NCBI GenBank assembly: GCA_021773565.1
Contig: JAJFJZ010000011.1
Location: 1-64,000 of the forward strand
Direction of reading: 5' to 3'
DNA: 64,000 nucleotides
Source: Gammaproteobacteria bacterium
GTDB lineage: Bacteria > Pseudomonadota > Gammaproteobacteria > Pseudomonadales > Azotimanducaceae
The notes beneath the pieces are model-generated. The model saw only the letters and a program-made list of their open reading frames with translations, was not told where the DNA came from and did no database searches. Both the position numbers and the translations under genes were made by a program. Below are positions 27,569-40,684 of this stretch, piece by piece (within the stretch, counting starts at the first letter, position 1; each line of letters begins with the position of its first letter).

Positions 27569-27792
27569 GATCGCCGTTGATTGAATCGTATCGAGACATA
27601 TCCGGTTGGGGCAGCTGGTGGCGCCATGTATGAGAAAGCCCTGTAAAAAACGCATGCCTGAATCAGCACCATTAAAAGCGGGCGGAGACAGATTTCTATA
27701 AGGTGTAACCTGATGATTAAGTGACCTTTCCGCTCATCAATGGTAGCGTGCCACCGACTCTCATCGCGCCCCAACAGGGGCTTGAAACTGCA

Positions 27793-29556
27793 ATGAACCA
27801 AACCGCGTGGCAATCATCCAAACCATACCAAAAATTCAATCTGGTTGTGCGCGTGCGGTTATTATTGTTTGTCAGCCTTTTATGGACACCGAATCTTTTC
27901 GCAAACTCCGTCACCATTGTCGGAGTCGAAGGTGAGCTTGCAGAAACCATTCAGGGATATCTAGCGCTGGATAAGCCTGACTGTTTTGCCAGCGAACGGG
28001 CTTTAAGGCGCCGACTCCGGGGAGCCGATGAATTGGTTCAACAAGCCCTGGATGCTTTCGGGTTATTCAATGCTGAATTCTCCATAGCACATCGCCAAAT
28101 CGAAGAGTGCTGGCGTGGCGAGGTTACCGTTCAACCCGGGGAGCCTATGGAAATCAAGCAGTGGAAACTCGACGTGGTGGGTCCCATCCTCAGTGAGCAA
28201 ATCATCACCGCCACCCAAAAGGAACTGCGATTGGCAGAAGCAAAGCGCTTTGATCCACAGATTTACGAATCGGTTAAGTTCAATCTTTTGGGCCGCAGCC
28301 GCGATATCGGGTATCTGGATGCCAGACTGACCACACACAAAGTAAGCGTGGACCCTTCCGCCGGAAGAGCCGATATTGATTGGGTGCTGGATGGAGGAGA
28401 GCAGTATAAAGTTGGTGCTGTAAACGTGAATACGACGCAGCTTTCAGACGAGCTGGTTAGGGCCTTTCTGGATTTCGCACCAGGCACACCCTACGCTAAC
28501 AGTCGCTTTATCAAGTCGCACCAAAACCTTGTTGAGAGTGATTATTTCAAACATGTGCGTATTGAGCCTCACGTAAACGAACGCAATGCCGGGGCAGTAC
28601 CGGTGGACGTATCGGTAACTCCAACGGATCGCTGGTCAGCACTCACCGGAGTAGGCTTTTCCACGGACACGGGAATTCGCGGCAGGATTGACGTCGAAGG
28701 ACGATACCTGAATCGCCACGGCCACAAAGCAGCCCTGCGCGGACTGGCGTCGCCCGTGAAAGGGTCTTTAAACGTCAACTATCGTTGGCCCTACGGCGAC
28801 CCGACACACCAATGGTACTCACTCGAGCCGGGTGTTGCCTACGTGGATACGGATACTGCCAAAAGTACAACCACGAGCCTGCAGTTCAAGCGAACTCAGC
28901 GCGTGGCGAGCCGCTGGAACCATGTTGCCTCAGTTAACCTTACGTTCGAGGATTTTGAGGTGGGTGATCAGGAGGGTGATTCGCGATTAGTGTTGTTCAC
29001 TTCGCATTGGACCTATTCGACGGGTTCCCAGCAAAGCCGTCCCATGCGGGGAACCCGATTTAATGCTTATGTGCGTGGTGCCTTGCGCGCGCTGGGTTCT
29101 GACAGTGATGTAATGCAAGCCGGGCTTGCAGCCAAGCAGATAGTGCCATTTTTCTACGGCACCCGTTTTATCGTTCGCGGCGAGGTAGGCTGGACATGGC
29201 AAAATTCCTTCGCAGACCTGCCACCGTCATTGCGGTTTTTTGCAGGTGGTGACAATAGTGTGCGTGGTTATGATCTGGATGCCCTTGGAACTCTGGAAGA
29301 CGGCGAGGTAATTGGCGGACCAAAATTGCTGCTGGGTTCCCTCGAGTGGGATATGCCAGTGAAAGAAAATTGGGCGCTGGCTTTATTTGTTGACAGTGGT
29401 AGCGCGTACAAAAACAAACCGAATTTCAGCCACAGTATTGGCCTGGGTTTGCGATGGTTTTCGCCGCTCGGACCCATCCGCCTGGATCTGGCACATCCAC
29501 TGGATAATGACAGGGCTTCGATACGATTACACATCTCGCTGGGGCCGGATATATGA
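27793..29556 (+). CDS. tamA: Translocation and assembly module outer-membrane protein TamA
   Basis: An Omp85-family outer-membrane barrel with N-terminal POTRA domains. From the ATG the protein has ~587 residues with a signal peptide (VRLLLFVSLLWTPNLFA). POTRA segments occupy ~40-250 (SVTIVGVEGELAETIQGYLA, YKVGAVNVNTTQLSDELVRA). The barrel begins near WSALTGVGFSTDTGIRG and includes the Omp85 lid-type motif RFFAGGDNSVRGYD. The final strand ends in a Gly-Pro-Asp-Ile. With TamB it inserts autotransporters and other proteins into the outer membrane. A GTG at 27721 gives 24 extra residues and an unusually long signal, so the ATG is preferred. It overlaps tamB by 4 bases. Confidence 0.92.
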   Translation: MNQTAWQSSKPYQKFNLVVRVRLLLFVSLLWTPNLFANSVTIVGVEGELAETIQGYLALDKPDCFASERALRRRLRGADELVQQALDAFGLFNAEFSIAHRQIEECWRGEVTVQPGEPMEIKQWKLDVVGPILSEQIITATQKELRLAEAKRFDPQIYESVKFNLLGRSRDIGYLDARLTTHKVSVDPSAGRADIDWVLDGGEQYKVGAVNVNTTQLSDELVRAFLDFAPGTPYANSRFIKSHQNLVESDYFKHVRIEPHVNERNAGAVPVDVSVTPTDRWSALTGVGFSTDTGIRGRIDVEGRYLNRHGHKAALRGLASPVKGSLNVNYRWPYGDPTHQWYSLEPGVAYVDTDTAKSTTTSLQFKRTQRVASRWNHVASVNLTFEDFEVGDQEGDSRLVLFTSHWTYSTGSQQSRPMRGTRFNAYVRGALRALGSDSDVMQAGLAAKQIVPFFYGTRFIVRGEVGWTWQNSFADLPPSLRFFAGGDNSVRGYDLDALGTLEDGEVIGGPKLLLGSLEWDMPVKENWALALFVDSGSAYKNKPNFSHSIGLGLRWFSPLGPIRLDLAHPLDNDRASIRLHISLGPDI

Positions 29557-32500
29557 GACGCTGGTTTCTCGCACTCACAGCTTTTACCTTCACAACCGTC
29601 ATAGTTTGCATTGGTGTTTTGGGGTGGCTACTCACGACCAGTAGTGGCGCCCAGTGGCTTGCCGATCAGGTTACCGACCGATTTGAAGAAGTATCCTTAC
29701 ATCAGGTGTCTGGTAATCTGGTCGACGGATTGATGATTGGTAAACTGAGCATCCACGCTGCGCCAACACATTTTGAGGCGCACGAGACCCAGGTAAAGGC
29801 CGACCTGTGGGCACTGTTGTTCGACAGTCGCCTGGACCTGGCCCATCTGCGTATCCGTACATTGCTGGTAGAGTCAACTTCAACAGAAGCGAGTGATCCC
29901 GTGTCACCCCAACTATCCCTGCCGGAACCGCCGCTCGAGATCAATATTTCAGAGCTGCAAATTGCTGAGGCTAACATTATGGGTGAGCAGTTGTTGGGTT
30001 TCGTTGCAGCGCTATCTATTGCGACTGATCGCTTGACGATTGACATTGAATCTCTAAATGCTGTGGCTACTGACTTGTCTGGTCATCTCGAGATTCCCGT
30101 TGGTGCGCAACCCAGTATCGTTGGTGACATTAAATGGCAACGCAGTAATGCCAAAGGTCACTTAACCGCAACCGGTCTGTTGCATGCTTTACAGGTCGAG
30201 CATCAATTCGAGGGACCTGTCACCGTGTTAAGTCGAGGTAGCGTCAACGCTAGCGAGGTCCAAAGCCTGCGAGCTCGCCTGCAACACGAACTCCCCAAAT
30301 ACGAGCTGTCCTTGATAAACGAAATTACAATGACCGGTACGGATATTCTCATTGTGGGTTCGGGTAGTTACCAACAGTACAAGAGTGACTACTCAGTGGT
30401 GGTCTCAGGGGACACTATTACAGCAAGCCGAGTGTCGATTATTGACGATACCAACAAGGTTGCTGCCACCGGCACGCTGAACCTTGCTGACAATTCTGTT
30501 GTCTTAGATGGCGAGTTTCATGTGGAGGACTATACGGTATTGGTGTCAGGCATCGAAGGATTATCCAAAGGCACGTTCGAACTAAGGGGCAATCCAGATA
30601 ATCCGGAAATTTCTGCTAACTTTACTACAGAGGAAATACTGGTTTCGGGTGTCCGCTTGAAACATCTGCAAGGGAGTGCCAGCTATAGCGTTGACCTGGT
30701 AACGATAAAGGCCAGTGCGGACTCGGTTGCCTATGCGGGTGAATCCTTTTCAGATCTCATGATAAGCACCAGCGGTACTCTTGAGCACAGTGCTGTCAGG
30801 CTGCAATGGTCTGGCGGTAATCTCGATGGTCAACTCGGTTGGTCGGATGGCGGTCTGAGTGCGCACGTAAACTCCAACGCCATGATCACATACGTTGGTT
30901 CAAACTGGCGCAACGATGCACCAATTGATATTCGTATTGGTGGGGAAACGTGGAAAATAACACCGCACTGCTGGCAAGGCATCGGGAAGTTGTGCATTAC
31001 CTCGGTCACGTACACCGGCGGAAGGGAAGGTAGCATCAGCGGCTACCTGAGTCAGTTACCAATCCAGGCGGTGCCAGTGGAGGCCCTCAACTTTACACCA
31101 ACCGGCCAAATCGATGGTTCCTGGGAGTTCACATACAGCGACGAATGGTTGGGAACAGCTGCGTTTTCCATATCTGGGATGACAGCCTCAAATATGGAAC
31201 AGGAGATGATCATATTACCGGCCGTGACCGGAAATTTGCGGCTATCTGGCACCGAGTGGGGTGTCGACATTGCCGTTGCGCAGGATAAACTGGTTTTAAC
31301 CGGGGAGCTCGCGGCCAACGGATTTACTGCGGCTACGGCATTAAGTGGCTTTGTGCGGATGACGGACGAAGATTTGGCCCTGGTGAGAGAGTTTGAGCCG
31401 GGCTTCGAAAAACTATCTGGCTTGTACACCATCGAGATAGATCTCAGCGGTACGCTAGCAGATCCGCAGTACAAGCTGGTGGCAATGCTCGAACGCGGCA
31501 GCGTGGCATGGGATCAGCCGGCGATGAAATTTGACGATGTCACAGCACTTATTAATGCCACGAATAATCGCTGGTCGGCGACTGCCACCGGTCGGCAGGG
31601 CGACCAGGGGGGGCTCACCCTGCAGGCCGGTGGAACTACGCTCGATTTCGACGGAAGTGCTAAGGCCAATATTGCAGGCGCGGGTTTCCTTGTTGACTCA
31701 CCTGAAGTGCGTTTACGCCTTGTGCCGGATCTGTCTCTTGACTACAGCCAGGGCAAAATCAATCTGGGCGGGATAATCGAAGTACCAGAGGCGACCATTG
31801 AGCTTGCGAGCGCACCAAAAACATTGCGAAAGCCCTCATTCGACGTCACCGTGCTGGGTCGCGCAGCCCCGAAAAAAGCTTCCAGCCGCACGCTCACCGT
31901 TGATGGCCGTGTCACAGTTGAATTGGGTAATGCAGTGCGCTACTCGGGTTTAGGCCTGGATGTTGGCATCACCGGGAATCTTGTCGCTGATATCGAGAAT
32001 ACGGAACTCACCGCGTTACGGGGGGAGCTGGTTATCTCGGGAGGCAAGCTTGAAGCAGAAGGTCAGTCTCTAACGGTCGAATCCGGCCGACTGCTTTATA
32101 CCGGTGCTGTGGATCGACCCTATCTGGAATTGATTGCGGTGCGTCAGATCGAAGATCAAACTCCGCCGCTCAAGGTTGGTTTGCGGGTTCGGGGCACGAT
32201 CGACAATTTGGAATCCAGCGTGTACTCCAATCGAGTCATTTCAGATACTTCTGCGCTTTCGTATCTGGTTTTAGGACGGGATTTTGAATCGGAGGGTGCT
32301 GACACGGACAACAGCCGTCTGCTTGCAGCAGCCTTCAACCTGGGTCTAAAGAAATCTGCGCCTGTATTCGATCAGCTGAGCAATGCCCTCGGCATGGATG
32401 AACTCAGTGCGCTTGCCCTGGGCCAATCGGAATTTGCCATCGTTGCCGGAAAGCGTATCTCAAAAGATCTCTATGTTCGTTACACTTACAATGCGCTCTC

Positions 32501-32609
32501 TGCAGTAGGCGCGTTTGTGATTCGCTATAGTTTGAGTAAGCGCGTGCGACTGGAGGCCACAAGTTCGGAGAACTCATCTATGGACATACTCTATAAGTTC
32601 ACTCGTTAA
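29553..32609 (+). CDS. tamB: Translocation and assembly module protein TamB
   Basis: A 1018-residue AsmA/TamB-like protein. One N-terminal helix (FLALTAFTFTTVIVCIGVLG) anchors it in the inner membrane; the long remainder is a repetitive beta-taco expected to bridge the periplasm. The C-terminal TamB/DUF490 domain is clear: ARGELVISGGKLEAEG-like segment at TALRGELVISGGKLEAEGQ, then RVRGTIDNLESSVYSNRVIS, SALSYLVLGRDFESEG and the end VGAFVIRYSLSKRVRLEA. It partners TamA, whose stop overlaps its ATG; together they handle outer-membrane protein insertion and possibly phospholipid transport. Length is somewhat below the E. coli protein. Confidence 0.92.
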   Translation: MRRWFLALTAFTFTTVIVCIGVLGWLLTTSSGAQWLADQVTDRFEEVSLHQVSGNLVDGLMIGKLSIHAAPTHFEAHETQVKADLWALLFDSRLDLAHLRIRTLLVESTSTEASDPVSPQLSLPEPPLEINISELQIAEANIMGEQLLGFVAALSIATDRLTIDIESLNAVATDLSGHLEIPVGAQPSIVGDIKWQRSNAKGHLTATGLLHALQVEHQFEGPVTVLSRGSVNASEVQSLRARLQHELPKYELSLINEITMTGTDILIVGSGSYQQYKSDYSVVVSGDTITASRVSIIDDTNKVAATGTLNLADNSVVLDGEFHVEDYTVLVSGIEGLSKGTFELRGNPDNPEISANFTTEEILVSGVRLKHLQGSASYSVDLVTIKASADSVAYAGESFSDLMISTSGTLEHSAVRLQWSGGNLDGQLGWSDGGLSAHVNSNAMITYVGSNWRNDAPIDIRIGGETWKITPHCWQGIGKLCITSVTYTGGREGSISGYLSQLPIQAVPVEALNFTPTGQIDGSWEFTYSDEWLGTAAFSISGMTASNMEQEMIILPAVTGNLRLSGTEWGVDIAVAQDKLVLTGELAANGFTAATALSGFVRMTDEDLALVREFEPGFEKLSGLYTIEIDLSGTLADPQYKLVAMLERGSVAWDQPAMKFDDVTALINATNNRWSATATGRQGDQGGLTLQAGGTTLDFDGSAKANIAGAGFLVDSPEVRLRLVPDLSLDYSQGKINLGGIIEVPEATIELASAPKTLRKPSFDVTVLGRAAPKKASSRTLTVDGRVTVELGNAVRYSGLGLDVGITGNLVADIENTELTALRGELVISGGKLEAEGQSLTVESGRLLYTGAVDRPYLELIAVRQIEDQTPPLKVGLRVRGTIDNLESSVYSNRVISDTSALSYLVLGRDFESEGADTDNSRLLAAAFNLGLKKSAPVFDQLSNALGMDELSALALGQSEFAIVAGKRISKDLYVRYTYNALSAVGAFVIRYSLSKRVRLEATSSENSSMDILYKFTR

Positions 32610-32617
32610 CCAACTTG

Positions 32618-33979
32618 TTAGATAAGCGCCGGTAGTACCTGGCTTGCAAGACTAAGCAACAAAAAGAATCCGCACATATCGGTAACGGTAGTAAGCAGTG
32701 GCCCCGACGCCACCGCCGGATCCAGTTTCAAACGTCGCAATATCAGCGGCACGGTGCCTCCAATAGACACGGCCACTATCGTGTTTAAAGCCAGTGCACC
32801 GCCAACGACGAGGCCCAGCACGGGGTTACCCTTCCATGCCCAGGCGGCCATTCCGAGTAACAAGCCAAGTGCCATTCCATTTATGATGCCCACTACTGCT
32901 TCCTTTCGCCAAACCCGCAGTACATCGGAGGGCACGGCAGCACCCAGGGTTAACTCGCGCATGCTGACTGCCACGGCCTGATTTCCAGAACAGCCACTCA
33001 TATCGGAAACGATGGGCAGAAATACGGCGAGCGCAATGACTGCGGTTAAGGTGTCCTCATATGCAGCTATGACGCTGGCCGCAATGATGTTTAACAGGAT
33101 ATTAATGCTGAGCCACGCTAATCGTCGACGAGAACGTAGCCATACCGGCATGCTACGCAACTCATCACCACCGATGATACCAGCCACTTTGAGACTATCT
33201 GCCTCTGATCGTTCCGCTAGCGCTTCCAGAAGTGAGCGGCGACGAACGATTCCCAAAAGCATCTGGCGAGCGTCTACAACTGGCACCGCGGCTATGTCGT
33301 GCTCATCAAAAAACGCCTCTAATGCTTCAAGCGGTGTTTCTGGTGATACTACCAATGCTGGTGACACGATTTCGCCGATCTTTTGTTTGGGATCGGAAAA
33401 AACCAGATCGCGGATGCGGATGACGCCCTTTAGCTTTTTGGCCTTAACTACCACATACACGTAGTGCACCGTCAGCAAATGGTAGTCAACGGTTTCACTG
33501 GTCAGGTCGTCGACAACTTCTCTCACCGTGGCCGTCATCGGGTAGGATGCGTATTCCGTCATCATGAGTCCACCGGCTGAATCAGGCGCATAATCGATTA
33601 GTTCGCGTACTTCATCCGCATCTTCATCGTCCAGTTCGGCGATAATTGCGTCGGCTTCGGTTTTATCCAACTCGGAGAGTACGTCAACGCGATGATCACT
33701 TGAGAGCTCTTCTACAATTCCCGCTGCATCATGTGCAGACATATCCTCAATCAGGTCAGCCGCGTGCGCGTCAGGAAGTTCCTCTACCAGAGAAGCCGCC
33801 CGGGGTGGCGTTAGCGCGGATAAGAGCGCTCTCTGGTCGTCCGGGCTTAACATGTAAACAGCGTGCAACAAATCCGCTGAATCAAGCCCGTCTATTTCCC
33901 GACCGAGCTCTTCCGCTCCCAGACCGCTGGCCAGCATTTCGCGAATTTTTTTCTCGGGGTATCGAATCGTGCTATCCAC
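32618..33979 (-). CDS. mgtE: Magnesium transporter MgtE
   Basis: A ~453-residue Mg2+ channel/transporter. The N-terminal Mg-sensing helical domain (LLHAVYMLSPDDQRALLSAL, DLIEDMSAHDAAGIVEEL) is followed by two CBS domains (MTEYASYPMTATVREVVDDL; VVSPETPLEALEAFFDEHD) and the membrane part with AVAVSMRELTLGAAV-type and GTVPLILRRLKLDPAVASGP motifs. The start is taken as the GTG at 33979, which has CGAGGGAAAATT directly upstream; a GTG 45 bases earlier lacks a ribosome site. It is the last gene of a seven-gene minus-strand cation operon. Confidence 0.93.
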   Translation of the reverse strand: MDSTIRYPEKKIREMLASGLGAEELGREIDGLDSADLLHAVYMLSPDDQRALLSALTPPRAASLVEELPDAHAADLIEDMSAHDAAGIVEELSSDHRVDVLSELDKTEADAIIAELDDEDADEVRELIDYAPDSAGGLMMTEYASYPMTATVREVVDDLTSETVDYHLLTVHYVYVVVKAKKLKGVIRIRDLVFSDPKQKIGEIVSPALVVSPETPLEALEAFFDEHDIAAVPVVDARQMLLGIVRRRSLLEALAERSEADSLKVAGIIGGDELRSMPVWLRSRRRLAWLSINILLNIIAASVIAAYEDTLTAVIALAVFLPIVSDMSGCSGNQAVAVSMRELTLGAAVPSDVLRVWRKEAVVGIINGMALGLLLGMAAWAWKGNPVLGLVVGGALALNTIVAVSIGGTVPLILRRLKLDPAVASGPLLTTVTDMCGFFLLLSLASQVLPALI

Positions 33980-34051
33980 AATTTTCCCTCGTATAGATTG
34001 TTTCGAATTTGTAGCGCCCGCCACCCGCGAACGCCACCAGCAGACTTGCGA

Positions 34052-35254
34052 CTACTTTCCAACCTTGTCGATAGCGGATTGACTAAGGCTCTTAACCTTC
34101 GGGCGCCTGCGGCGCTGAGACTTCGGCGCGAGCAAGCCACGCATCGAGTCGAGTTTTCCGAAGCACAGAAGCCTGTCATGGGCCTGCAAGGTTCGACTGT
34201 CCTTTGGGTTGGGAATTTCGGTCTCACCGCGATACAGAGTAAGTACATTTACGTCACTGTCTCGCAACTTCGTTTCGGTGATAGTCATTCCGTCGAATTC
34301 AGAATCTTTTGGAACGTGAATTTCACTAACGCCATAACCACTACTCACGGTCAGCCTTTGGCGTACATCGATCTCGGGAAAGTCGACCCGTGCAGCGATG
34401 TACTCAACAATAGCACCGGCAATATCCAGGTTAGTACATGTTTCAATACCCTCGAGGCCTGGAGAGGAATTAACTTCCATTACCTGTGGACCTGCATCGC
34501 TCTCCAGCATATCCACTCCGGCGACACGCAGGCCAAGAATTTGTGCGGAGCGTACGGCTGTTTCAACGTACTCTTTTGACAGCTCTACCGGTTCTGCTAC
34601 GCCGCCTCGGTGTACGTTGCTACGAAATTCCTGGCCCTGCGCGACCCTGCGCATAGCCGCAACCACGCGATCGCCTACCACAAACGCACGGATATCCTTG
34701 CCTTTGCTTTCTGCGACAAATTTTTGAATCAGTACGTCCTGCTTCTGGCTTTGTAGTAGTTCGATTATGGACTCTGCAGCTTTAATAGATTCTGCCAACA
34801 GTACGCCTATACCCTGGGTTCCCTCTATAAGTTTGATGACAACAGGTGCACCACCCACTCTCTCAATTGCCGGTAATACGTCTTTCTTGTCATTGACAAA
34901 AGTAGTTCTGGGAATACCGATATGATGTCGGCTGAGAATCTGCAGGCTCCGAAGCTTATCGCGAGAGTTCGAAATTCCATTGGCTGTGTTCGCGCAGAAC
35001 ACATCCATCTCCTCAAACTGTCGAACCACAGAGGTTCCATAGTAGGTAATTGATGCGCCAATGCGCGGTAGTACAGCATCATAGTGACTGAGTTGTTTTT
35101 GTCGAAAATATAAATCCGGCGAACCCTGATCCAGGTCGATCGCAAATTTTAGCGTGTTGAGCACCTTTGCGTCGTAGCCACGCGCCAGAGCGGCCTCTTT
35201 TAAACGACGTGTGCTATAGGATTTTGGTCCGCGTGATAGAATTGCCAGTTTCAT
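34052..35254 (-). CDS. RimK-like ATP-grasp ligase fused to an RCK_C (TrkA_C) domain
   Basis: A 400-residue two-domain protein. Residues ~1-290 are a RimK-type alpha-L-glutamate ligase: KLAILSRGPKSYSTRRLKEA, RIGASITYYGTSVVRQFEEM, GGAPVVIKLIEGTQGIGVLL (ATP-binding loop), GDRVVAAMRRVAQGQEFRSN and VMEVNSSPGLEGIE (metal ligands). Residues ~305-380 are an RCK_C domain: VSEIHVPKDSEFDGMTITE, NVLTLYRGETEIPNPKDSR, LQAHDRLLCFGKLDSMRGL. RCK_C domains regulate ion channels and transporters by binding ions or nucleotides. The tail is very basic (SQRRRRPKVK). Set among Mg/Ca/ion transporters, it may add glutamates to a partner in an ion-responsive way; this is inference. AAGGAAT precedes the ATG. Confidence 0.9.
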   Translation of the reverse strand: MKLAILSRGPKSYSTRRLKEAALARGYDAKVLNTLKFAIDLDQGSPDLYFRQKQLSHYDAVLPRIGASITYYGTSVVRQFEEMDVFCANTANGISNSRDKLRSLQILSRHHIGIPRTTFVNDKKDVLPAIERVGGAPVVIKLIEGTQGIGVLLAESIKAAESIIELLQSQKQDVLIQKFVAESKGKDIRAFVVGDRVVAAMRRVAQGQEFRSNVHRGGVAEPVELSKEYVETAVRSAQILGLRVAGVDMLESDAGPQVMEVNSSPGLEGIETCTNLDIAGAIVEYIAARVDFPEIDVRQRLTVSSGYGVSEIHVPKDSEFDGMTITETKLRDSDVNVLTLYRGETEIPNPKDSRTLQAHDRLLCFGKLDSMRGLLAPKSQRRRRPKVKSLSQSAIDKVGK

Positions 35255-35293: not shown

Positions 35294-36523
35294 TTACCAT
35301 TTGATACCAACCCGCCGAATTGCCCTGTCGGATACTTCCTCGATCGAGAATTCGAACCGGCGGTACTTAACGACACTTCCCACCTCGGGAATTTCACGCG
35401 CGAGATCAATTAGAAACCCTCCCAGCGTCTCGTAGTTGCCGTCAGGCAGGCTCACTGGAGTCGCCCGGGCGAGATCTTCGATGTCGATGCGCGCGTTCAC
35501 GCGTATGTTGTTTTTGCTGATTTTTTCGATCATCTGGAGCGAATCATCAACATCATGTTCGTCCGTGATCTCACCAACCACTTCTTCGAGCAAATCCTCG
35601 ATTGTGACGATACCGTCTACGCCTCCGTATTCGTCGACTACAACCGCCATTCGTTGCGAAGACATACGCAATGTTACTAACAACTCTTCCACATTTTGCG
35701 AGCCCGGAACAAATCTGACAGGGGAAACGAATTGGGAAATCGGCGCGTCTATATCTTCTCCCAACAACTCGAGCGCGTTGAGAATACCTACTACGTTGTC
35801 CACCCGTTTTCGATACACCGGCAAACGATGGTGCGCGTTTTGCGCAGCAAGTTTGGTGGTCTGGCCACAGGTTGCCGATTCTTCTACGCCAACTACTTCA
35901 ATCAAAGGTGTAAGAACCTCACTAACCGATGTGTCGTGAAACTCAAAAACGCGACGAATCATATCCTGCTCTTCGGGATCGACATCGCCACTTACGCTCT
36001 TCATCTGCATCAACGAGGCTATTTCTTCGCGGATGGTAAACGGGTTTGATTCAGATTGACCGGTAACCCGAGCAAGGAAACGGGTGAGAAAGCCGAATAC
36101 CACTAAAAGAGGATAAAAAAGATACGAGGCGAGCCGAACAAAGCCGATGACTTTTGGGGTAATGTTGTCAGCGTGGTGTTGGAATGCGCTCTTGGCGACA
36201 ATCTCGCCGAAAACCCATGACAAGGGTGCCACGATCACTGCTGCCAACCAACCCCACTTGTCGCCAAATACGCTTACCACCAGCATAGTGGCAACTGTGG
36301 TATTGGTCACGATAGATATGTTGGTGCCAACCAAAGTTGTGGAAAGTAGCCACTCGGGCTTTTTTAACATATCCAGTGCAAGTTGCGCACCACGAGAACC
36401 CTGTTCGGCTTTGTGAAGTAATTTCGCACGATCAGCACTAACAATACCAATCTCCGAACCGGAGAAGAATGCCTCCAGTACGAGGCACAACAACATAATA
36501 AAAATTGCGGTTACGGGATCCAT
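35294..36523 (-). CDS. CNNM/CorC-type membrane protein (DUF21, CBS pair, CorC_HlyC), copy 2
   Basis: A 409-residue hemolysin-family protein. The DUF21 membrane domain (~1-190) has LCLVLEAFFSGSEIGIVSAD and WVFGEIVAKSAFQHHADNI. Two CBS domains follow (VSEVLTPLIEVVGVEESATC; FVSPVRFVPGSQNVEELLV with MAVVVDEYGGVDGIVTIEDL), then the CorC_HlyC domain (NIRVNARIDIEDLARATPVS to the end). CNNM/CorC proteins export Mg2+ or Co2+ coupled to Na+. It stands four bases downstream of a paralogue, with which it may work as a heterodimer. Confidence 0.92.
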   Translation of the reverse strand: MDPVTAIFIMLLCLVLEAFFSGSEIGIVSADRAKLLHKAEQGSRGAQLALDMLKKPEWLLSTTLVGTNISIVTNTTVATMLVVSVFGDKWGWLAAVIVAPLSWVFGEIVAKSAFQHHADNITPKVIGFVRLASYLFYPLLVVFGFLTRFLARVTGQSESNPFTIREEIASLMQMKSVSGDVDPEEQDMIRRVFEFHDTSVSEVLTPLIEVVGVEESATCGQTTKLAAQNAHHRLPVYRKRVDNVVGILNALELLGEDIDAPISQFVSPVRFVPGSQNVEELLVTLRMSSQRMAVVVDEYGGVDGIVTIEDLLEEVVGEITDEHDVDDSLQMIEKISKNNIRVNARIDIEDLARATPVSLPDGNYETLGGFLIDLAREIPEVGSVVKYRRFEFSIEEVSDRAIRRVGIKW

Positions 36524-36526
36524 TAC

Positions 36527-37840
36527 CTAAGGCTCCGAGCCGACTGGAGTTTCAGACTTTGACGCTGACTCGCGCCCCACTTTGACGTTCAGGGATACAA
36601 TTCTCTGGCTTGTGATCTCGGTAACGGTGAGTAGCACATTGTCTACGTCTACGACATCCCCTACGTTTGGGAACTCGCCGCGCGTGTGTAGTACTAACCC
36701 GGCCATTGTCGTTACACCGGCACGTTCCAGACTGGTGCCAGCAATTGCATTAAATTGCCGAATTGTCAGCGATCCGCTGGCGCGGAATAAGCCCGCACCC
36801 AGTGCCTCCAAAGAAGACGTTTCTGCCAGCCTGCTATCAGACCAGCTGGGAAGATCACCGAATATACATTGCATAATATCTTCAAGTGTTATTAGTCCCA
36901 CTACACCGCCAAACTCATCACTGACCAGTGCTATCGATACCTGGCGTTCGCGCATTGCAACGAAAATGTCAGATGCTGTGCGGGTGGCTGGCACCAGGTA
37001 GGGTTTTCGTAATCTCTCGCGGACTGGGTGCTCTGCGTAGGGTGTGTCTTCAGTCACATCTAAATCCAGAATATCGCGTGCGTACAGCACACCCTCTATC
37101 GATTTTCCATCTGCGCCAAAAACCGGCACTTTTGAGTGACGGCTTTGTCGAATTACTTCAACGATTTTCGAGAACGACATGGAGGTATCTACAGAAACAA
37201 GTTGCGAGCCATAGGTCATCAAGTCACCGACAGACTTGTTGCCAAAGTCAAAAATCTGATGAATGTATGCGGATTCCTTGGTATCAAGAGAGCCCTCGCC
37301 AACTGCAGCGTTGGTTAAGGAGCGCACCATATCTTCTGTCAAAATGTTGTTTTGCGACCGTTCTTCTGTAACTATGAGTTTGATGAAAAATTCCGAAACA
37401 AGGCGAACCGCGTTACGCAGGGGCGTGATGAAGTGAGCGAACATTTCGATGTATCGGCTCTGAAAGGTCGCAAAAGCAACATTGTTTCCAAACGCCAGAG
37501 TCTTCGGCGTAATCTCACCAAACAACAGCAGCAAAGGAACCATAATAACGACATTCAACCAACTATTACCGGCACCAAACACTTCAATGATGATCGTTGC
37601 AGACAGAACAGAGGCCGAAACATTAACGAATTCGTTGCCGATCAAAATTGTTGCTATCAGGCGCCTTGGTTCCGCCAACAAATTTTCGATCAAACCCAAC
37701 CGTGGATTGCGATCGCGTCGCATCTGTCGCAACTGTGCCGAGCTCAGGGAAAACAGGCTTGTTTCTGAGCTGGAGAAAAATGCAGACAGCGCGAGTAATA
37801 ATACCATTACCGCGAGCTCTATTATCAGGACGATGTCCAC
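36527..37840 (-). CDS. CNNM/CorC-type membrane protein (DUF21, CBS pair, CorC_HlyC), copy 1
   Basis: A 437-residue paralogue of the next gene. DUF21: LLLALSAFFSSSETSLFSLS and LLLFGEITPKTLAFGNNVAF. CBS pair: VGDLMTYGSQLVSVDTSM and DIFVAMRERQVSIALVSDE with FGGVVGLITLEDIMQCIFGD. The CorC_HlyC domain starts near LGAGLFRASGSLTIRQFNAI. Expected role is divalent cation (Mg2+) efflux. It begins with GTG, with AAGGACTGAA overlapping the stop of the upstream mechanosensitive channel gene, so translation is probably coupled. Confidence 0.92.
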   Translation of the reverse strand: MDIVLIIELAVMVLLLALSAFFSSSETSLFSLSSAQLRQMRRDRNPRLGLIENLLAEPRRLIATILIGNEFVNVSASVLSATIIIEVFGAGNSWLNVVIMVPLLLLFGEITPKTLAFGNNVAFATFQSRYIEMFAHFITPLRNAVRLVSEFFIKLIVTEERSQNNILTEDMVRSLTNAAVGEGSLDTKESAYIHQIFDFGNKSVGDLMTYGSQLVSVDTSMSFSKIVEVIRQSRHSKVPVFGADGKSIEGVLYARDILDLDVTEDTPYAEHPVRERLRKPYLVPATRTASDIFVAMRERQVSIALVSDEFGGVVGLITLEDIMQCIFGDLPSWSDSRLAETSSLEALGAGLFRASGSLTIRQFNAIAGTSLERAGVTTMAGLVLHTRGEFPNVGDVVDVDNVLLTVTEITSQRIVSLNVKVGRESASKSETPVGSEP

Positions 37841-37841
37841 T

Positions 37842-39197
37842 TCAGTCCTTGCCTTCTACAATTTCGTTGCTCAGGGATTCCAGTGAAGAGGAGCGCAGGT
37901 GAAGGTCGCGCTGGGGATATGGAATCTCAATTCCGTTTTCATGAAATTTGTCCCAAATACTCAGCAATACTTCGCTGATAACATTTGCCCGGCCATTCAT
38001 CGGATCGTCAATCCAGAATCTCAATTCAAGATTTACTGAACTATCGCCGAATTCCTGCATATGACATACAGCAGCCGGTTCTTTCAGGATGCGGGGTGTT
38101 CCATCGGCTGCCTCCAGGCACAGTGCGATGGCTTTTCTGACATCTGATTTATAGTGAACTCCAATAGTTTTCTTCAGGCGAAGCAGATTCTGCGAATAAG
38201 ACCAGTTTTCGACGCGCGTGGTGATCAGTTCTTCGTTTGGAATCAGGTGTTCGATACCATCACGGGTTAGAACAGAGACATAACGTGCACCGAGAGAATC
38301 CACACGGCCGTAGTAATCGGCAATTGCGATAACGTCGCCAGGTTTAATTGATTTATCGAGCAGGAGGATAAACCCGCTGACCAGATTCGCAAAAATCTTC
38401 TGGAGTCCAAAGCCCAGACCAACGCCGATTGCACCACCAAACACGGCGAATGCGGTGAGGTCGATACCGACAATCTTCAGCGCAACTACCACCGCCACAA
38501 GTACAAGAACAATGCGCATCAACTTGGTGGATAACACTTTTATTGAAGGCGAGAGATTTTCAGATGACTTTATTCGCCCTTCGACGAGCTGCCCGACGAC
38601 TGTGGTCAACCAGAGAAGCACGCCCAAAGCAATCAGTCCTTGCACCACTATCAACAGCGATACGTCGACCTGGCCGAAAGAAAGTGTAGCGCCATCCAGA
38701 AAGGTGATGGTGTTATCCAGCAAGCCGACAATATTTAGTGCTGCGGCTATCCATGCGACAATTGAAATAGTGAGTGACAGCAATGGATTGGCTACAAACA
38801 CGGTTGCTACATTGATTACGATCCATGCAGTTAGCAGGCTGGAGGTAACCACGAGTGCAGCATGCCGAAACTCGAGATATACCATGACTGCGACTATCAA
38901 CCACTGGGCAGCCAACCAAACCGCGGGAAATGCAAGCTTGTTGAGCGTAGACCAAAGTCGTCGAAGCAGGGCGAATCGATCATATTTTGTACGCTGCAGT
39001 AACAGCTTGTTGCGTACTACCTTTGATATTGGCCAGGCTAACGATGCGGCAATGACGATCATGCCGAGCTCAATAAGGGTTGCAGTCGTAAACAGGTTAT
39101 CGATAGCCCAGGACTGGCCTTCGCTCAGCCAACCAGACCAAACGTCACCGTTCGTCAGATCTCCCAATATTGTTTTCTCGCCCTCCACTAGATCCAC
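37842..39197 (-). CDS. MscS-family mechanosensitive ion channel
   Basis: A 451-residue channel with about five or six N-terminal helices. The pore-lining helix and following segment carry the MscS signature AVFGGAIGVGLGFGLQKIFA then NLVSGFILLLDKSIKPGDVI, and the beta-domain has GRVDSLGARYVSVLTRDGIE and HLIPNEELITTRVENWSY. The C-terminal alpha/beta vestibule ends at LHLRSSSLESL. It would release osmolytes or ions on membrane tension. The start overlaps the CorA-like gene's 3' end by 10 bases; a second in-frame GTG three codons in is possible. Confidence 0.93.
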   Translation of the reverse strand: MDLVEGEKTILGDLTNGDVWSGWLSEGQSWAIDNLFTTATLIELGMIVIAASLAWPISKVVRNKLLLQRTKYDRFALLRRLWSTLNKLAFPAVWLAAQWLIVAVMVYLEFRHAALVVTSSLLTAWIVINVATVFVANPLLSLTISIVAWIAAALNIVGLLDNTITFLDGATLSFGQVDVSLLIVVQGLIALGVLLWLTTVVGQLVEGRIKSSENLSPSIKVLSTKLMRIVLVLVAVVVALKIVGIDLTAFAVFGGAIGVGLGFGLQKIFANLVSGFILLLDKSIKPGDVIAIADYYGRVDSLGARYVSVLTRDGIEHLIPNEELITTRVENWSYSQNLLRLKKTIGVHYKSDVRKAIALCLEAADGTPRILKEPAAVCHMQEFGDSSVNLELRFWIDDPMNGRANVISEVLLSIWDKFHENGIEIPYPQRDLHLRSSSLESLSNEIVEGKD

Positions 39198-40237: not shown

Positions 40238-40567
40238 TCAGGGAGACCGGGCTACGATCTTCCTGATTGACTGCGACAGCTCATCCCATGCGACATCAAC
40301 CTGAAAGCGCAGCTTCTCCCACGATTGGTCATTAGCACTTCCAAGCTGATCGAGCTGCTTTCTCAATTCTGCGATGCATGCATCGGCCTGGCGCTCGGCT
40401 TTCAGCAATTGTTCGCTCGGATGAATCCGGCCGGAATGCGTCGCAAGGTTTATTTTGCGCTTGACCAAACCCAGCGTCGTTTTCTTTTGAGCAAGCATAA
40501 CTTCAATATTTTGTATGTAGCTTTTCTTGCCTTTCTTGCTTCTGCAATTGTAGGGGTCTTCTTTCAT
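40238..40567 (-). CDS. Small coiled-coil protein, sll1863-like stress-protein layout
   Basis: A 109-residue charged, helical protein: SYIQNIEVMLAQKKTTLGLV, then a heptad-like LLKAERQADACIAELRKQLD, ending with WEKLRFQVDVAWDELSQSIR. The closing Trp-Glu-x-Leu ... Ala-Trp-Asp-x-Leu pattern is the layout of short coiled-coil proteins annotated as sll1863-type stress response; this is recognition by pattern. The ATG at 40567 has AGGGGTG about eight bases upstream; the ORF is open further upstream but lacks signals. It is the first gene of the cation operon and diverges from the LysR gene. Confidence 0.7.
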   Translation of the reverse strand: MKEDPYNCRSKKGKKSYIQNIEVMLAQKKTTLGLVKRKINLATHSGRIHPSEQLLKAERQADACIAELRKQLDQLGSANDQSWEKLRFQVDVAWDELSQSIRKIVARSP

Positions 40568-40684
40568 GATGTGCACCCCTGAATTGGTGACATGAATGCA
40601 GCACGATTGCTCTGGTTTGTGTCGATATGCCATTGGTCGGCGCTTGATATCCACAGTATTCTTTTTGTTTGATAGATACAACTA

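What the first reader, a model, noticed from the sequence alone, without database searches (positions are those of the whole stretch)
34052..35254. RimK-type ATP-grasp ligase fused to an ion-sensor (RCK_C) domain inside a cation operon
The protein joins an alpha-L-glutamate ligase core (residues ~1-290) to a TrkA_C/RCK_C domain (~305-380) and a basic tail, and is encoded between CorC and MgtE genes. RCK_C domains normally gate ion channels. Fusion to a peptide ligase suggests that glutamate tagging of a protein or peptide is switched by ions or a nucleotide. I know of RimK fused to a protease-like domain, but not of a described role for RimK-RCK_C.
Basis: partly seen in the sequence, partly recalled or inferred. 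Interest (0 to 1): 0.75.

Follow-up and report, generated by a model that had tools for sequence, protein, structure and literature searches.

The report
Glutamate ligase with ion-channel regulator domain
A bacterial enzyme that strings glutamates together carries a regulator domain normally found on potassium channels and sits in a magnesium-transport gene cluster, which suggests that this protein- or ribosome-tagging system responds to the cell's ionic or osmotic state.

Summary
Window 34052-35254 encodes 400 aa: Rimk_N + RimK ATP-grasp + TrkA_C/RCK_C, all above Pfam cut-offs. The fusion is no accident: sampled fusions lie on one side of a 100/100 branch, in hosts labelled with nine phyla; poly-glutamate contact residues are kept; RCK_C evolves under purifying selection. 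It behaves as a Rim-system ligase: in 17 of 19 genomes without a canonical RimK it sits beside RimB protease or AstE-type genes, against 3 of 16 genomes that also hold one. The link to Mg2+ transporters/MscS is real: 22 of 61 fusion loci against 1 of 59 comparison regions. But canonical RimK shows it equally (10 of 31), so it belongs to RimK genes generally, not to RCK_C. c-di-AMP is an unlikely ligand here: no diadenylate cyclase found in this genome or in 20 of 36 other fusion genomes. "Ion sensor" is not supported; the ligand is unknown. Best reading: a poly-glutamate ligase switched by RCK_C and tied to ionic/osmotic physiology. New variant of a known kind.

The parts
34052..35254 (-). RimK-RCK_C fusion protein, 400 aa, ATG start
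   Evidence: AAGGA-like ribosome site before the ATG, seen by eye in the bases printed
34973..35254 (-). Rimk_N pre-ATP-grasp domain (residues 1-94)
   Evidence: Pfam PF18030 E 2e-35
34397..34963 (-). RimK ATP-grasp catalytic domain (residues 98-286)
   Evidence: Pfam PF08443 E 1.3e-58; model matches RimK 7qyr_A, TM 0.88 normalised to target; poly-Glu contact residues kept
34343..34393 (-). Conserved linker (residues 288-304), as conserved as the catalytic core
   Evidence: mean identity to window 0.85 against 0.82 for the core and 0.61 for RCK_C over 28 rows; low model confidence at 294-304
34139..34327 (-). TrkA_C / RCK_C domain (residues 310-372 by Pfam; about 305-375)
   Evidence: PF02080 E 3.5e-9; 25 of 25 segments, window included; fold match to MthK and KhtT
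34079..34129 (-). Basic tail (residues 376-392)
   Evidence: net charge +7 in the window, 0 to +9 over 29 rows, identity 0.44
32618..34024 (-). MgtE Mg2+ channel, last gene of the presumed operon
   Evidence: PF01769, PF03448, CBS; TIGR00400 above cut-off
35294..36523 (-). CNNM/CorC-type protein (CNNM + CBS + CorC_HlyC)
   Evidence: at E 1e-50 only 3 of 57 other relatives have a match, 35% identity at best
36527..37840 (-). Second CNNM/CorC-type protein
37842..39197 (-). MscS-family mechanosensitive channel
   Evidence: PF00924, PF21082
39188..40204 (-). CorA-family Mg2+ transporter
   Evidence: PF01544 E 1.1e-64
40238..40681 (-). sll1863-family small protein, first gene of the presumed operon
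   Evidence: NF052504 41.5 bits, cut-off 35

Best explanation
The gene encodes a catalytically competent RimK-type poly-alpha-L-glutamate ligase of a distinct, widely transferred clade that carries an RCK_C domain as a built-in switch. It is the ligase half of a Rim write/erase module: RimK-RCK_C adds glutamates (to ribosomal protein S6 and/or as free poly-glutamate), RimB-type retropepsin cuts them off, and an AstE/AspA-type deacylase probably finishes or redirects the product. In this genome the RimB and AstE partners are encoded in the separate canonical Rim cluster and would act in trans, while the ligase is probably co-transcribed with CorA, MscS, two CNNM proteins and MgtE. RCK_C most likely works by ligand-dependent or self dimerisation that alters the RimK tetramer, so that glutamylation follows the ionic/osmotic state. 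Shown here: domains, conserved residues, grouping of the sampled fusions, selection on RCK_C, statistical link to RimB/AstE and to transporters. Inferred: activity, target, switching by RCK_C, co-transcription. The ligand is not identified.
For: RimK domains and NCBIfam TIGR00768 subfamily above cut-off. Poly-Glu contact residues of P. aeruginosa RimK (S7, R8, S14, R64, S68, R189, N262) and R211/H215/R216, named in passages of PMC10092738, are all present in the window; across 29 fused rows 7 of the 10 positions are invariant, S7 and S68 have one T each, R8 is C in 20 and K in one. Full model matches RimK crystal structures. RCK_C confirmed by sequence and fold. 38 fused rows on one side of a 100/100 branch. 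RCK_C dN/dS 0 to 0.11 in the 6 of 10 pairs where dS was not saturated, three of them within one trio. RimB/AstE adjacency: 17 of 19 genomes without against 3 of 16 with a canonical RimK, p 3e-5. Transporter link 22 of 61 against 1 of 59, p 7e-7, including a held-out set of 11 of 24 against 1 of 19, p 0.005. Tight seven-gene cluster. RimB removes glutamates from RpsF and stimulates poly-Glu synthesis (PMC11957791, abstract passages). RimB-like RloA proteases are needed in hypo-osmotic medium in P. aeruginosa (PMC12239564 passages).
Against: No experiment. No RimB or AstE gene in the window's own cluster: the genome's matches lie on contigs 19, 30 and 31, not 3. S6 of this genome is 218 aa and ends EEKK, not in glutamate, so S6 may not be a substrate here. 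Canonical RimK, without RCK_C, shows the same transporter link (10 of 31), so the link cannot be credited to RCK_C. 39 of 61 fusion loci have no such transporter within 9 kb of what was fetched. The window's CNNM has no close homologue in the relatives searched, and its gene order was seen in no other locus tabulated. R8 is replaced in 21 of 29 fused rows. Seeds for the transporter search came partly from the first fusion loci; many loci are from related genera or short contigs, so p-values overstate independence. The best full-length model has mean pLDDT 77.5, the other four only 59-63.
Confidence: 0.5

Rival explanations
1. RCK_C is only a structural dimerisation module: it stabilises a higher-order RimK assembly and senses nothing.
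For: RCK_C domains dimerise (recalled); RimK is a tetramer (PMC10092738 passages); domain retained in genomes where no diadenylate cyclase was found; RCK_C is more variable than the catalytic core (0.61 against 0.82).
Against: Purifying selection on RCK_C, a conserved linker and invariant positions in and before RCK_C suggest more than passive glue, but do not prove ligand binding.
Confidence: 0.25
2. RCK_C is a c-di-AMP receptor that switches the ligase, as in KtrA/KhtT/BusR.
For: Solved RCK_C relatives include c-di-AMP-bound KhtT and the BusR transcription factor; 16 of 37 fusion genomes hold a DAC domain, none of them labelled Pseudomonadota (two are unlabelled).
Against: No DAC match in the window's genome (98% complete) or in 20 further fusion genomes; 0 of the 10 with stated completeness of 90% or more. 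RCK_C is kept there. P. fluorescens RimK does not respond to c-di-AMP (PMC7343187 passage), though it has no RCK_C.
Confidence: 0.08
3. The gene is a horizontally acquired passenger that happens to lie in a transporter operon; it performs ordinary S6 glutamylation.
For: Patchy distribution: 4 of 370 class genomes, 28 of 390 order genomes, 1 of 297 in the phylum of G440 (each count includes the genome the search started from); gene tree mixes phyla; CNNM neighbour lacks close relatives among 57 other genomes.
Against: The transporter link recurs with different families and gene orders in 22 of 61 fusion loci against 1 of 59 comparison regions, and with canonical RimK.
Confidence: 0.17

Closest known systems
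RimK, ribosomal protein S6--L-glutamate ligase (E. coli, Pseudomonas)
   Same: Rimk_N + ATP-grasp, 45-54% identity to solved RimK structures, same active-site residues
   Different: Adds a C-terminal RCK_C domain and basic tail; separate group on a long branch (1.14 changes per column); 326.7 bits against the S6-ligase equivalog cut-off of 331
RimBK hybrid of Desulfotalea psychrophila (DP2392)
   Same: RimK fused to another domain; RimB-RimK partnership (PMC11957791 passages)
   Different: There the partner is an N-terminal RimB protease (residues 1-163); here it is a C-terminal RCK_C and RimB is a separate gene
BusR (GntR-type regulator with RCK_C) and KtrA/KhtT/MthK RCK_C domains
   Same: A soluble protein with RCK_C as a regulatory module; sequence and fold matches
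   Different: Effector is a peptide ligase, not a DNA-binding domain or channel; no RCK_N; no c-di-AMP synthase found in this host
RloABC of P. aeruginosa
   Same: RimB-like protease plus ATP-grasp protein, tied to hypo-osmotic tolerance (PMC12239564 passages)
   Different: Secreted protease, inactive transglutaminase membrane protein, ATP-grasp only 24% identical to RimK; no RCK_C mentioned in the passages seen

Membership tests
RimK-family alpha-L-glutamate ligase | Rimk_N and RimK ATP-grasp domains; TIGR00768 subfamily score | tested here: met
   121.4, 198.2 and 258.9 bits, all above cut-offs
RimK-family alpha-L-glutamate ligase | Poly-glutamate and ATP site residues | tested here: met
   10 of 10 listed contact residues present in the window protein; residue list from passages of PMC10092738; the further ATP/Mg residues checked are recalled
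S6-specific RimK (NCBIfam NF007764 equivalog) | Score over the curated equivalog cut-off | tested here: not met
   326.7 against 331 bits
S6-specific RimK (NCBIfam NF007764 equivalog) | Glutamylates ribosomal protein S6 | not testable with these tools
   S6 of this genome ends EEKK
TrkA_C / RCK_C domain | Pfam PF02080 over cut-off and RCK_C fold | tested here: met
   36.9 bits against 27; 25 of 25 segments, window included; fold matches from E 1.6e-5
KTN/RCK cation channel regulator | RCK_N Rossmann domain before RCK_C | tested here: not met
   no TrkA_N family among the 11 Pfam matches of the protein
c-di-AMP receptor | Host makes c-di-AMP (DAC domain, PF02457) | tested here: not met
   0 matches in G000; matches in 16 of 37 fusion genomes
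Rim system (RimB-RimK) | rimB beside rimK | tested here: not met
   not in the window's cluster; RimB at G000 C19 and C30. Across loci, RimB or AstE beside the fusion in 17 of 19 genomes without a canonical RimK
RimBK hybrid | N-terminal RimB domain in the same chain | tested here: not met
   no PF05618 match in the protein

The most novel reading that the evidence does not exclude
The Rim system as a whole, canonical and RCK_C-bearing, is an ionic/osmotic adaptation module. RimK and RimB set the amount of poly-alpha-glutamate (on ribosomes or free) as a polyanion that buffers Mg2+/K+ or tunes the ribosome to them, working with CorA/MgtE/CNNM/MscS. In the RCK_C clade the ligase itself reads the signal through a domain borrowed from K+ channels.
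Probability: 0.22. Interest if true: 0.82.

Novelty: new variant of a known kind. Interest (0 to 1): 0.58.

Why it matters
What the RimK/RimB glutamylation system senses and what it is for is still open; in P. fluorescens RimK answers to c-di-GMP and RimA (PMC7343187 passages). A RimK clade with a built-in regulator domain gives a handle on a different input, and the recurring neighbourhood of Mg2+ transporters and MscS, for canonical RimK as well, offers a directly testable hypothesis that poly-glutamate tagging belongs to ionic or osmotic adaptation. An independent hint: K05844 (RimK; the KEGG number is recalled) is named among glutamate-modification genes more frequent in brackish than marine genomes (PMC10219603 passage).

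Tried and rejected
c-di-AMP as ligand in this host: rejected for lack of a DAC match. Transporter link as a property of the fusion: rejected, because canonical RimK has it too; a preference of the fusion for MgtE (12 of 61 against 1 of 31) is only borderline (p 0.054). N-terminal extension of the L032 ORF as a RimB fusion: the 200 residues before RimK-RCK_C do not look like RimB by eye (not scanned with Pfam). Plasmid carriage: 115 plasmid records match by tblastn, none with one place covering 80% of the query, so no full fusion was seen on plasmids. Conserved operon with this CNNM: at E 1e-50 only 3 of 57 other relatives have a match, at most 35% identity. Promoter/terminator scan gave no more sites than shuffles (3 against 8.9; 9 against 8.6). 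Paper searches: 'RimK'+'TrkA-C' 0 papers; 'RimK'+'RCK' 1 paper, where 'RCK' was not found in the main text; 'TrkA'/'ATP-grasp'/'RimK', 15 of 59 listed, seen as titles and abstract starts, none on the fusion; RimK with MgtE/CorA/MscS/CorC, 20 of 365 listed, and with osmotic/mechanosensitive/magnesium transporter, 10 of 3,646 listed, none on this link; two searches listed 15 and 6. The amidoligase survey by Iyer and colleagues (2009, recalled) is not held under the DOI I tried, so it may already list such RimK gene neighbourhoods or this fusion.

L009, L020 and L036 were not among the genomes asked for canonical RimK, so they are not in the 35 genomes; G009 and G019 (partial or broken fusion) are not either. 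That table was entered by hand; it counts L023's genome as lacking a canonical RimK although it has a 43% match (248.7 bits), and L027's although it has a 33% match; some contigs end near the gene. RimB hits needed no 60-bit minimum, the other families did. Canonical loci were taken from the top of the score list (31 of about 170). Comparison regions were picked at round coordinates in the same genomes, not by a random generator; L125 (3.1 kb) and L117 (10 kb) are short; one of 20 asked for did not exist.

Full report
What is there. The reported span holds a 400-aa ORF on the minus strand. Pfam gives Rimk_N (1-94), RimK ATP-grasp (98-286) and TrkA_C (310-372; 36.9 bits against a cut-off of 27). 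No RCK_N half and no RimB domain were found. The protein is 45-54% identical to solved RimK structures and scores well above the RimK-family cut-off but slightly below the S6-ligase equivalog cut-off (326.7 against 331). The C-terminal domain was checked three further ways: TrkA_C in 25 of 25 segments, the window's included; a profile search of the PDB that finds KtrC, KtrA, KhtT, MthK and a GntR-type regulator at E 1.6e-4 to 3.3e-3; and a fold search of the predicted domain (mean pLDDT 75) whose best matches are MthK RCK domains, with KhtT and BusR further down.

Surroundings. The gene is the sixth of seven minus-strand genes: sll1863-family protein, CorA, MscS, CNNM, CNNM, RimK-RCK_C, MgtE, with gaps of 33, -10, 1, 3, 39 and 27 bp. 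Co-transcription is inferred from spacing only. Elsewhere in the same genome a stand-alone RimK lies in a RimK-AstE-RimB cluster, itself followed on the other strand by CorA and MscS.

The fusion as a family. A scan of genome contigs gave 32 loci; 29 match from residue 1 to residue 365 or beyond, and L036, L037 and L038 are partial. L020 runs out of frame within RCK_C. A tree of the catalytic part, 38 fused and 33 canonical rows, puts all fused rows on one side of a branch with 100/100 support; the root is at the midpoint, so this is a clade only if the true root lies elsewhere, and the fused rows were found by similarity to one query. Record labels of the fused hosts give Pseudomonadota, Planctomycetota, Acidobacteriota, Candidatus Krumholzibacteriota, Thermodesulfobacteriota, Chloroflexota, Verrucomicrobiota, Bdellovibrionota and Myxococcota (most are metagenome-assembled). 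It is rare: 4 of 370 sampled genomes of the class (whose match list is cut but ordered by score, so broken copies could be missed), 28 of 390 of the order, 1 of 297 in the phylum of the cable-bacterium genome G440. The patchy spread and mixed labels point to lateral transfer. The window's class is not named; it is inferred to be Gammaproteobacteria because G764, of the same order, has a contig identical in length and gene position to that of Chromatocurvus halotolerans.

Is RCK_C maintained? Mean identity to the window protein is 0.82 for the catalytic part, 0.85 for the linker and 0.61 for RCK_C over 28 rows, and 0.44 for the basic tail over 27. In the 6 of 10 pairs where synonymous sites were not saturated (three of the six come from one trio), dN/dS of RCK_C is 0 to 0.11, against 0.02 to 0.05 for the core. 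So RCK_C is under purifying selection, mostly weaker than on the core.

Is it a working ligase? The residues that touch poly-glutamate in P. aeruginosa RimK (named in passages of PMC10092738) are all present in the window protein; over 29 fused rows R8 is C in 20 and K in one, the rest are invariant or have one exception. Activity itself is not tested.

Does it belong to the Rim system? RimB (PF05618) and AstE/AspA-type (PF24827) genes lie beside many fusion genes. In genomes where no canonical RimK was found, 17 of 19 have RimB or AstE within 9 kb of the fusion; where one was found, 3 of 16 do (p 3e-5, entered by hand). The window belongs to the latter class. This fits the fusion being the ligase of a Rim module whose partners can be supplied in trans. 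Canonical RimK was judged from matches near 305-335 bits; L023's genome, with one 43% match of 248.7 bits, was counted as lacking it.

Transporter link. CorA, MscS, MgtE or CNNM genes (phmmer, 60 bits or more, seeds from the window and from the first fusion loci) lie within 9 kb of 11 of 37 fusion loci and 10 of 31 canonical RimK loci, against 0 of 40 comparison regions of the same genomes; within 4 kb the counts are 10 of 37 and 7 of 31. The seeds make the first fusion count partly circular. A held-out set, fetched afterwards with the seeds unchanged, gave 11 of 24 fusion loci against 1 of 19 regions (p 0.005). Together: 22 of 61, 10 of 31, 1 of 59; fusion against comparison p 7e-7, canonical against comparison p 6e-5, fusion against canonical p 0.82. 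Pfam confirmed 8 of 8 transporter calls that were checked. MgtE is commoner beside the fusion (12 of 61 against 1 of 31), borderline at p 0.054. Loci from one genus or family are not independent, so these p-values are too small. Ten neighbouring genes from nine loci without these transporters were mixed: GGDEF twice, beta-lactamase family, peptidase M3, EamA, GCV_T, transglutaminase, AraC-type regulator, and two without a family.

What does RCK_C sense? Not known. c-di-AMP is unlikely here: no DAC match in G000 and none in 21 of 37 fusion genomes, all of them of the window's class or labelled Pseudomonadota, while the 16 others have it. In the 21, RCK_C persists. P. fluorescens RimK is stimulated by c-di-GMP and not by c-di-AMP (PMC7343187 passages). 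Dimerisation that modulates the RimK tetramer, with or without a ligand, is the most economical idea. Cys364 is invariant in all rows of the C-terminal alignment (25 of 25); it could be structural or redox-related and is only noted.

Literature. Little et al. 2025 (PMC11957791, abstract and passages) describe RimB as a retropepsin-like protease that removes glutamates from RpsF and stimulates poly-Glu synthesis, and a RimBK hybrid; 'TrkA' does not occur in its main text. The mBio 2025 paper (PMC12239564, passages) ties RimB-like RloA proteases to hypo-osmotic survival. The 2023 salinity study (PMC10219603, passages) lists K05844 among genes more frequent in brackish genomes. A caesium-resistant E. 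coli strain carried a rimK missense change, one of three nonsynonymous changes (PMC10831881, passages), a weak hint. The CDC123 paper (PMC4431377, passages) mentions RimK but not TrkA or RCK. None of the papers listed appeared to describe RimK-RCK_C, but those lists were seen as titles and abstract starts, some were capped, and the 2009 amidoligase survey (recalled) is not held.

Verdict. Observation confirmed; interpretation partly supported. A new variant of a known kind: a laterally spread RimK clade with a selected RCK_C domain, acting in the Rim system, in a genomic setting that points to ionic/osmotic physiology. Mechanism and ligand remain to be shown.

Noticed in passing
G000 C19:95281-99700 (L073 9082-13522): The canonical RimK-AstE-RimB cluster of the same genome is itself followed on the opposite strand by CorA and MscS genes.
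   Followed up: yes
G000 C27:141165-141431 (L110): Ribosomal protein S6 of this genome is 218 aa with a long Glu-Ala-rich tail ending EEKK; in 8 of 9 other fusion genomes whose S6 was fetched it is 138-169 aa (the ninth, L105, was not caught by my pattern).
   Followed up: partly
L007 10233-13225, L011 10262-13266, L216 10225-13202, L220 5986-8990: Recurring set beside the fusion: a small MscS-like membrane protein (PF05552), an MgtE_N protein and MgtE, as three adjacent genes (Pfam for L007 in part and L216; phmmer for the others).
   Followed up: partly
window 34133-34168 (residues 363-374): Invariant Cys364 and Lys367 at the end of RCK_C (25 of 25 rows); the three solved RCK_C domains aligned have V, V and L at the Cys position.
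   Followed up: no
L217 7475-8602, L232 10440-11657: Two fusion loci have a GGDEF diguanylate cyclase gene next to the Rim genes, of interest because c-di-GMP stimulates P. fluorescens RimK.
   Followed up: no
L225 10314-11108: A transglutaminase-like gene lies between the fusion and RimB, which recalls the inactive transglutaminase RloB of the Rlo system.
   Followed up: no
G447 (L030 genome) C348 and C659: A Rhodopirellula-labelled genome carries two fusion genes, 74% and 72% identical to the window's.
   Followed up: no
window 27721-32609: An outer-membrane-assembly-like pair (611 aa and 1018 aa, TamA/TamB-like by eye) converges on the MgtE end of the operon; not scanned.
   Followed up: no
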